Of a stretch of DNA of 64,000 bases, positions 250 to 61,319 are shown one piece after another. Position numbers and translations under genes: made by a program. Origin of the DNA: Betaproteobacteria bacterium. Its GTDB lineage: Bacteria; Pseudomonadota; Gammaproteobacteria; Burkholderiales; SG8-41. Position 1 is the first letter of the stretch, and each line of letters opens with the position of its first letter. The notes beneath the pieces were generated by a model. That model saw nothing but the letters and a program-made list of their open reading frames with translations. It made no database searches and was not told the DNA's origin. Where the stretch lies: NCBI GenBank assembly GCA_029863175.1, contig JAOTVX010000007.1, positions 60,866-124,865 of the forward strand, written 5' to 3'.

Positions 250-270
250 CCGGAAAAAACTTGTAACGTT

Positions 271-326
271 TTCTCTTTAGCCGGATTTGTAACGCGCCCG
301 CAAGCTGAATATCAAATCGGCGCGAC
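271..326 (-). promoter_or_regulatory. SAM-II riboswitch aptamer
   Basis: The minus strand reads TCGCGCCGATTTG, then a loop, then GGGCGCGTTACAAAT and CCGGCTAAAGAG. This aligns with the classic SAM-II pseudoknot: P1 is formed by CGCGC and GCGCG, the GATTT and AAAT strands form the triplex region, and the conserved GCTAAA closes the pseudoknot. It lies 63 bases upstream of metX, a known SAM-II target gene. The class is best known from Alphaproteobacteria, where it usually acts on translation. Here an intervening hairpin with a T tract suggests control of transcription termination. Confidence 0.85.
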
Positions 327-390
327 AGAAGCGGATGGAACGTTACCCGCCCAGACCCGGAAAGTCAAATTCCCGCCGGGCCGGGCGGCG

Positions 391-60695: not shown

Positions 60696-60800
60696 ATGGG
60701 CAAAGGTGATCAACGTACGCTCCGTGGCAAGTTATTCCGTGGCAGCCATGGCAAGACTCGACGGCGCAAACAGAAGAAGAAAAAGCCCGCCGCGCGGTGA
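60696..60800 (+). CDS. Small ribosomal protein bTHX
   Basis: 34-residue, very basic peptide MGKGDQRTLRGKLFRGSHGK followed by TRRRKQKKKKPAAR. This is the pattern of the THX protein that fills a cavity in the head of the 30S subunit in Thermus and many proteobacteria. A weak AG-rich site (GGGGAGACCAGAA) precedes the ATG. Its stop is 24 nt before the peroxiredoxin-like start, so the two are probably co-transcribed. Confidence 0.88.
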   Translation: MGKGDQRTLRGKLFRGSHGKTRRRKQKKKKPAAR

Positions 60801-60824
60801 CAGTAAGAAAGGAGAGGAAACGAC

Positions 60825-61319
60825 ATGACGCAAGCGAGCAGCATTAAACTCGACTCGGGCACCCGCTTTCCGGACATCGAGTTCCCATTGCTCGATGGGA
60901 CGAAGCTGTCCTTGCCGGGGGCATGGTCGGGCCGTTGGGGTTCGTTGCTCTTTTATCGCGGCCACTGGTGACCGTACTGCCGTCAGCAGTTTGCTGACTT
61001 CCAGCAAAAATTGGCCGAGCTCAAGAAACTCGGCGTCGAAGTGCTTGCGGCGTCCGTGGACAACGAGCAGGACGCGCGGCGCATGGTCGAGGAGACCGGC
61101 GTGACGTTTCCGGTCGCCTACGGCCTGGATCCGGAACGCATCAGTGAACTCACCGGCGCATTCTGGGAAACCAAGCGCCGGATCCTGCACGCGACGGGAT
61201 TTCTCATAAAGCCCGATGGCACCCTGGCGCACGCGGTCTACGCGACCGGGCCGATTGGCCGCTATACCGCGTCGGACGTGATCAAGAACGTCCAGTTCAT
61301 GACCCAGCCGAAGAGCTGA
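60825..61319 (+). CDS. Peroxiredoxin-like selenoprotein with in-frame UGA (Sec49)
   Basis: Continuous thioredoxin-fold frame from ATG 60825 to TGA 61319 if the TGA at 60969-60971 is read through. Around it the protein reads LLFYRGHW-U-PYCRQQFADFQ; family members have RGHWCPYCR, so UGA replaces the first Cys of CxxC, giving UxxC. GVEVLAASVDNEQDARRM and HATGFLIKPDGTLAHAVY follow, completing about 164 residues. AGGAGAGG precedes the ATG. Prx-like selenoproteins with UxxC are known. The alternative is a Cys-to-stop pseudogene, but the rest of the frame is intact and a hairpin follows the UGA. No sel genes are in the window. Confidence 0.85.
60972..61004 (+). promoter_or_regulatory. Candidate bacterial SECIS element
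   Basis: Ten bases after the TGA, GTCAGCA (60982-60988) pairs perfectly with TGCTGAC (60992-60998) around a GTT loop. CTG (60977-60979) and CAG (61002-61004) can extend the stem. The loop G is 18 nt past the UGA, inside the 16-37 nt range reported for bacterial SECIS elements, and a G followed by U in the apical loop is the key SelB contact. Confidence 0.7.

What the first reader, a model, noticed from the sequence alone, without database searches (positions are those of the whole stretch)
60825..61319. Probable selenocysteine-containing peroxiredoxin-like protein
The in-frame TGA at 60969 falls exactly where the family has the first Cys of its CxxC motif (RGHW-U-PYCR). The frame on both sides is intact and well conserved. 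A perfect 7-bp hairpin with a GTT loop begins ten bases after the TGA, at the distance expected for a bacterial SECIS. Standard gene callers would split or truncate this gene. It would imply that the organism has SelA, SelB, SelC and SelD.
Basis: partly seen in the sequence, partly recalled or inferred. Interest (0 to 1): 0.85.

Follow-up and report, generated by a model that had tools for sequence, protein, structure and literature searches.

The report
Selenocysteine redoxin missed by gene callers
A bacterial gene that looks broken by a stop codon most likely encodes one whole redox protein, with that stop (UGA) read as the rare amino acid selenocysteine at the active site; it is a well-supported new example of a known kind of protein.

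Summary
Window 60825-61319 is one gene for a 164-residue AhpC/TSA-type redoxin; the in-frame TGA at 60969 stands at the first position of a UxxC site (RGHW-U-PYC).

In draws of 300 genomes of the order and 74 of the family of a relative, every match that covers the site at 37% identity or more has TGA there: 26 genes in 25 genomes. More distant homologues mostly have Cys. The hairpin 60982-60998 is kept across the 27 genes: 161 of 162 pair cells, 4 of 6 pairs changed on both sides.

selB is over cut-off in 20 of the 25 genomes, selA in 11 of 11 tested, selD in 10 of 11; tRNA-Sec lies beside the redoxin gene in 4 of 26 loci.

The window's own genome is not held, so its machinery is inferred; so is the enzyme's activity.

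UxxC 'Prx-like' selenoproteins are known (PMC13188914, passages). No NCBIfam model reaches its cut-off here. New member of a known kind.

The parts
60825..61319 (+). Selenocysteine-containing AhpC/TSA-type redoxin gene, 164 residues (Sec49, Cys52; no other Cys), stop TGA 61317-61319
60811..60817 (+). GGAGAGG ribosome-binding-like site, 7 bases before the ATG (read by eye from the sequence)
60969..60971 (+). In-frame TGA, read as Sec49 (position of the first Cys of CxxC)
60978..60980 (+). TGC codon of Cys52, partner of Sec49
60982..60998 (+). bSECIS-like hairpin GTCAGC-AGTTT-GCTGAC (7 bp with GTT loop if the A-T pair is counted); G60989 lies 18 nt after the last base of the TGA
60696..60800 (+). 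Upstream neighbour: 30S ribosomal protein Thx (PF17070); also upstream in L001, L002 and L047-L049
61581..61841 (-). Downstream neighbour: DUF493 (PF04359); kept as neighbour in L001, L002, L047 and L049

Best explanation
Window 60825-61319 is an intact selenoprotein gene. Inferred decoding: SelB with GTP and Sec-tRNA-Sec binds the hairpin just 3' of UGA 60969 in the mRNA and delivers Sec to the ribosome. Inferred action of the product: a thioredoxin-fold redoxin whose only redox pair is Sec49-Cys52. The Sec49 selenolate attacks a peroxide or a disulfide, Cys52 closes a selenenylsulfide, and a thioredoxin- or glutathione-type reductant resets it. Shown here: frame under selection on both sides, TGA/Cys pairing, conserved and covarying hairpin, Sec machinery in relatives. 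Inferred: decoding in this organism, substrate, reductant.
For: TGA at the homologous codon in all 26 relatives that cover the site at 37% identity or more in the two draws, in 25 genomes, no TAA/TAG. Cys codon there in 20 of 20 non-TGA loci re-aligned from the phylum draw, in 12 of 14 from the order draw, and in Ktedonobacteria L003-L005. Hairpin: 161 of 162 cells paired, 4 of 6 pairs with both-sided changes, covariation score 0.489 against 0.250 +/- 0.028 shuffled (0 of 500) and at most 0.140 when slid; RNAalifold gives the same six pairs. Codon 7 after the TGA is TTG in 24 of 24 Leu cases, against 13% TTG among other Leu codons of these genes. selB over cut-off in 20 of 25 genomes, with 2 of 14 control genomes over it; selA in 11 of 11 (controls 1 of 14); selD in 10 of 11 (controls 2 of 14). 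tRNA-Sec beside the redoxin in L027, L028, L029 and L031, 4 of 26 loci. selD carries a TGA in 4 of 11 genomes, followed by a hairpin with a GUU loop. AF2 model pLDDT 90.6; Foldseek to peroxiredoxins and ResA.
Against: No whole genome is held for the window and no tRNA gene was found in it, so the machinery is not shown for this organism. Folded alone, the 48 nt from the TGA on prefer another structure in the window (probability of a central hairpin pair 0.19) and in several relatives; in the 33 nt after the UGA it is 1.00 in the window but low in L058 (0.08) and L061 (0.03). Two of the four compensated pairs changed only between the two clades (12 against 15 genes) and one in a single gene, so independent events are few; one of the five covariation measures (pair types) is not above shuffles (500 of 500), and pairs with both-sided change is reached by 8 of 500. 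5 of 25 genomes show no selB over cut-off; of these G012, G054 and G061 have selA, G318 and G355 were not tested for selA, and G054 and G061 show no tRNA-Sec over cut-off. Two more distant peroxiredoxins (L039, L043) have Thr at the site. The longest run of identical codons between window and L001 is not unusual (10531 of 20000 shuffles). P0022, inside a Sec clade, is recorded with Cys.
Confidence: 0.96

Rival explanations
1. The gene is a pseudogene or carries a nonsense mutation or sequencing error at a Cys codon; only the 102-aa downstream ORF, or nothing, is made.
For: ORF listing splits it; 28 of 120 listed database homologues are 92-116 aa long.
Against: All 26 relatives covering the site at 37% identity or more in two draws share TGA and none has TAA/TAG; dN is low on both sides; the hairpin is kept; the downstream piece alone lacks the Sec49-Cys52 site.
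Confidence: 0.02
2. TGA is read as Trp or another residue (altered code or a suppressor) rather than as Sec.
For: Five database relatives (P0006, P0014, P0017, P0030, P0032) have Trp at the site, perhaps from gene calling with code 4; their DNA was not seen.
Against: The window's gene and several relatives end at TGA stops; most homologues have Cys at the site; tRNA-Sec, selA and selB are present in relatives.
Confidence: 0.01
3. The UGA is a Sec codon, but the protein is a true peroxidase working through Cys52 as peroxidatic Cys, with Sec49 as the resolving residue.
For: In profile alignment Cys52 falls on the Cys and Sec49 on the Thr of the peroxiredoxin motif (6q5v, 5xbq, 5xbs).
Against: The Pro and Thr of that motif are not present here (R45, U49); ResA's WCxxC aligns at the same place (4nmu). 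In CxxC thioredoxins the first residue is the nucleophile (recalled).
Confidence: 0.25

Closest known systems
Prx-like thiol:disulfide oxidoreductase selenoproteins (PF00578, UxxC; PMC13188914 Table 1; PMC1794560; 'Prx-like 1' in PMC2398784; all seen as passages)
   Same: PF00578 domain and UxxC motif
   Different: Their sequences could not be compared here; no passage read names the RGHW-U-PYC subfamily or places it in Burkholderiales
Redoxin family selenoprotein (PF08534, UxxC; PMC13188914 Table 1, passage)
   Same: PF08534 also matches (55.8 bits)
Thioredoxin-dependent peroxiredoxin PrxU (NF040737)
   Same: Best NCBIfam match, AhpC/TSA-type
   Different: 40.4 bits against a cut-off of 270; Sec peroxiredoxins are listed with TxxU (PMC13188914 Table 1), here UxxC
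SelL-related redox proteins (NF040769)
   Same: Weak profile match
   Different: 35.4 bits against a cut-off of 120
ResA/TlpA-type thiol-disulfide oxidoreductases
   Same: WCxxC aligned with WUxxC, similar fold
   Different: About 20-24% identity in the listed Foldseek rows; no N-terminal anchor apparent by eye (no predictor run)

Membership tests
Bacterial selenoprotein gene | In-frame TGA aligned with Cys in homologues | tested here: met
   (two distant PrxQ-like hits have Thr)
Bacterial selenoprotein gene | bSECIS hairpin just 3' of the UGA with G early in the apical loop | tested here: met
   stem kept with compensatory changes, invariant AGUU in the loop, G 18 nt after the UGA; bSECISearch not run; consensus recalled
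Bacterial selenoprotein gene | selA, selB, selD and tRNA-Sec in the same genome | tested here: inconclusive
   shown in relatives; window's genome not held
Bacterial selenoprotein gene | Selenium in the purified protein | not testable with these tools
   needs mass spectrometry or 75Se labelling
AhpC/TSA (PF00578) | Over gathering score | tested here: met
   76.9 against 26 bits
Canonical peroxiredoxin | PxxxT/SxxC active site (recalled; PMC13188914 passage gives PxxxTxxU for Sec forms) | tested here: not met
   RGHWUPYC: no Pro or Thr at those positions
PrxU (NF040737) | Over curated cut-off | tested here: not met
   40.4 against 270 bits
SelL-related (NF040769) | Over curated cut-off | tested here: not met
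   35.4 against 120 bits
Published Prx-like UxxC selenoproteins | Sequence clustering with the published members | not testable with these tools
   their sequences and supplements were not available

The most novel reading that the evidence does not exclude
A sizeable, unannotated Sec-redoxin subfamily is a main reason why many lineages of this betaproteobacterial order keep selenocysteine decoding. It comes in two Sec clades (window type and 'RR' type), and the RR type lies beside selA-selB-tRNA-Sec in several genomes. The 2006 survey had FdhA as the only selenoprotein of its Sec-decoding Betaproteobacteria (PMC1794560, passage); here 17 of 20 Sec-redoxin genomes gave no TGA-bearing hit to the formate dehydrogenase model TIGR01591.
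Probability: 0.45. Interest if true: 0.5.

Novelty: new member of a known kind. Interest (0 to 1): 0.4.

Why it matters
It turns an apparently broken gene into a probable working redox enzyme, and suggests that many genes of this kind sit truncated in databases (28 of 120 listed hits). It gives a clean set for SECIS modelling: a stem kept across two clades and an apical GUU also seen after the TGA of selD in four relatives. It also hints that Sec decoding in these lineages serves redoxins and SelD, not only formate dehydrogenase.

Tried and rejected
Pseudogene, sequencing error and altered code were rejected (see rivals). Free-energy folding of isolated 48-nt stretches was uninformative or against the hairpin. 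The run of identical codons around the hairpin between window and L001 looked striking but is not significant. The presence of a hairpin alone was judged weak. tblastn of the SelA and SelB ORFs of G001 (from L103) found nothing in the 64-kb window. The first tree count compared Sec only with Trp rows; it was repeated with Sec against Cys and only that one is used.

Literature: 'WUPYC', 'GHWUPYC', 'RGHWU', 'HWUPYCR' and 'WUPFC' searched anywhere gave 2 papers, unrelated by title, seen as listing only. 'selenoprotein, redoxin, Burkholderiales, SECIS' (3 of 4 needed) gave 7 papers, with Burkholderiales in none (listing). Other searches. Papers seen as passages: PMC13188914, PMC2398784, PMC12013277, PMC1794560, PMC5029168. 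Others as listing only.

Rows dropped: L060 (same gene as L002) and L022 (same as L001) from DNA alignment A1 (27 rows); L002, L052, L057, L060 and L061 not placed in protein alignment A2 (30 rows); L002 and L060 left out of the tree, which took 85 of the 120 listed proteins, those of 150-200 aa. A3 is a hand-picked set of 65: 60 of the 120 listed proteins, the window and 4 loci. Non-TGA hits L062-L065 were not re-aligned.

Full report
Observation. The window encodes, from ATG 60825 to TGA 61317-61319, a frame broken only by TGA 60969. Read through, it is a 164-residue AhpC/TSA protein (PF00578, 76.9 bits against a cut-off of 26) with the site YRGHW-U-PYCRQQ. ORF listing at 60 aa or more gives only the last 102 residues in this frame, and 28 of the 120 listed database hits are similarly short (92-116 aa).

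Is it one gene? Against L001 (Betaproteobacteria bacterium SG8_41, 86% amino-acid identity), dN and dS are 0.086 and 0.621 for codons 1-48 and 0.055 and 0.638 for codons 50-164. Both halves are therefore constrained as protein. Blocks on both sides of the gene align with L001 at 69-91% nucleotide identity, the longest being 2.4 kb at 88%. Thx upstream and DUF493 downstream are kept in L001, L002, L047 and L049; L048 shows Thx only; the other loci show neither within their flanks.

Is the TGA shared? A protein search of 300 genomes of the order of G001 gave 11 TGA-bearing matches in 10 genomes. A search of the 74 genomes of its family gave 18 TGA-bearing matches in 17 genomes. Together that is 26 genes in 25 genomes, all with TGA at the codon of residue 49. 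These are all the matches that cover the site at 37% identity or more in the two draws. The 14 weaker, non-TGA matches of the order draw have Cys at the site in 12 cases and Thr in 2 (L039, L043, PrxQ-like by their TPxC site). In the phylum draw only G001 of 398 genomes had TGA genes among matches at E <= 1e-20, and all 20 other loci re-aligned from it have TGC or TGT there. The Cys forms fetched from Ktedonobacteria (43-45% identity) have TGT (L003-L005). L002 has the TGA but lacks about 47 residues downstream, in frame; whether that is real or an assembly fault is unknown.

Is the hairpin real? In 27 distinct genes the stem of columns 14-19 with 25-30 pairs in 161 of 162 cells. Four of six pairs have changes on both sides: two of them in 12 genes each, one in 5 and one in 1. 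The covariation score is 0.489 against 0.250 +/- 0.028 in shuffles (0 of 500) and 0.140 at most when slid; the number of pairs changed on both sides is reached by 8 of 500 shuffles, and the number of pair types does not exceed them. Two of the pairs changed only between the two clades, so independent events are few. RNAalifold finds the same six pairs. AGUU in the loop is invariant. The Leu codon that carries it is TTG in 24 of 24 cases, against 13% TTG for the other Leu codons of these genes. Against the hairpin, the isolated 48 nt of the window fold better otherwise (hairpin pair probability 0.19), while the 33 nt after the UGA give 1.00; L058 and L061 stay low even there (0.08 and 0.03). 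The two Sec clades encode different residues here (RQQ with a following AD, and RRQ with a following G; L031 has VRQ), so the RNA stem is kept while the protein changes.

Is Sec machinery there? selB is over cut-off in G001 and G002, in G004, G007, G139, G177, G205 and G273 and in 12 of 17 genomes: 20 of the 25. G012, G054, G061, G318 and G355 have none over cut-off. selA is over cut-off in 11 of 11 genomes tested, among them G012, G054 and G061. selD is over cut-off in 10 of 11, failing in G004. tRNA-Sec at 71-77 bits is in 4 of 6 genomes tested, not in G054 or G061; matches of 47-49 bits just over the cut-off are probably other long-armed tRNAs. Over-cut-off hits among the 14 control genomes were 2 for selB, 1 for selA, 2 for selD and 5 for tRNA-Sec. 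In the order draw, selB occurs in 7 of 10 Sec-redoxin genomes against 77 of 290 others (Fisher p = 0.006). ARAGORN finds tRNA-Sec next to the redoxin in L027, L028, L029 and L031, 4 of 26 loci scanned, all of the RR type; selA and selB lie beside it in G273, G004 and G177. selD of G001, G002, G007 and G205 itself carries a TGA, 4 of 11 tested, followed by a hairpin with stem CAGC (CGGC in G205) and GCUG around the loop GUU, the same apical triplet as in the window. A formate dehydrogenase in G363 has a TGA too, followed by a hairpin with loop GUC.

What does it do? The AF2 model is confident (pLDDT 90.6, pTM 0.86) and matches peroxiredoxins and ResA-type oxidoreductases. In profile alignments Sec49 falls on the Thr and Cys52 on the Cys of the peroxiredoxin motif, and the pair falls on WCxxC of ResA. 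The protein has no other Cys or Sec, so the redox centre must be this pair. I favour a selenenylsulfide-forming oxidoreductase or peroxidase; this is inference, and substrate and reductant are unknown.

Evolution. In a tree of 111 proteins, window-type Sec genes (11, with P0022 recorded as Cys among them) and RR-type Sec genes (15) fall in separate parts. The Sec/Cys label needs three changes, and the well-supported branches force all three; the direction is not known because the tree is rooted at its midpoint for drawing only, and one of the changes may be due to P0022, whose Cys may be a database rendering of Sec. G001 holds one gene of each type.

Known or new? UxxC Prx-like selenoproteins are listed in reviews and surveys (passages of PMC13188914, PMC2398784 and PMC1794560). 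No NCBIfam model reaches its cut-off, and the motif strings gave no relevant paper. I file it as a new member of a known kind. A point of wider interest is the 2006 statement that FdhA is the only selenoprotein of the Sec-decoding Betaproteobacteria then surveyed (PMC1794560, passage). Here 17 of 20 Sec-redoxin genomes showed no TGA-bearing hit to TIGR01591 at E <= 1e-40; G007, G363 and G365 did.

Noticed in passing
window 256-333 (-): Rfam match to the SAM_alpha riboswitch (38.4 bits, gathering 36)
   Followed up: no
L103 1689-2612 (-): An ORF that looks like a thioredoxin-reductase-type flavoprotein (name from its N-terminal motif, recalled; no search run) lies between selB and tRNA-Sec in G001; it could be a reductase partner
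   Followed up: no
P0006, P0014, P0017, P0030, P0032: Database relatives with Trp at the Sec site; perhaps TGA translated with code 4 by the gene caller, DNA not seen
   Followed up: partly
P0022: Protein within the RGDW Sec clade recorded with Cys at the Sec site: a real Cys form or Sec stored as Cys
   Followed up: no
L002 4325-4534: In-frame deletion of about 47 residues downstream of the hairpin in an otherwise close relative; real or assembly fault
   Followed up: no
L045 and L001 (genome G001): One genome carries both Sec-redoxin types, window-like and RR-like
   Followed up: partly
L099-L102: SelD itself is TGA-bearing (SHGGG-U-GCK) in four relatives, with a following hairpin whose loop is GUU
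   Followed up: yes
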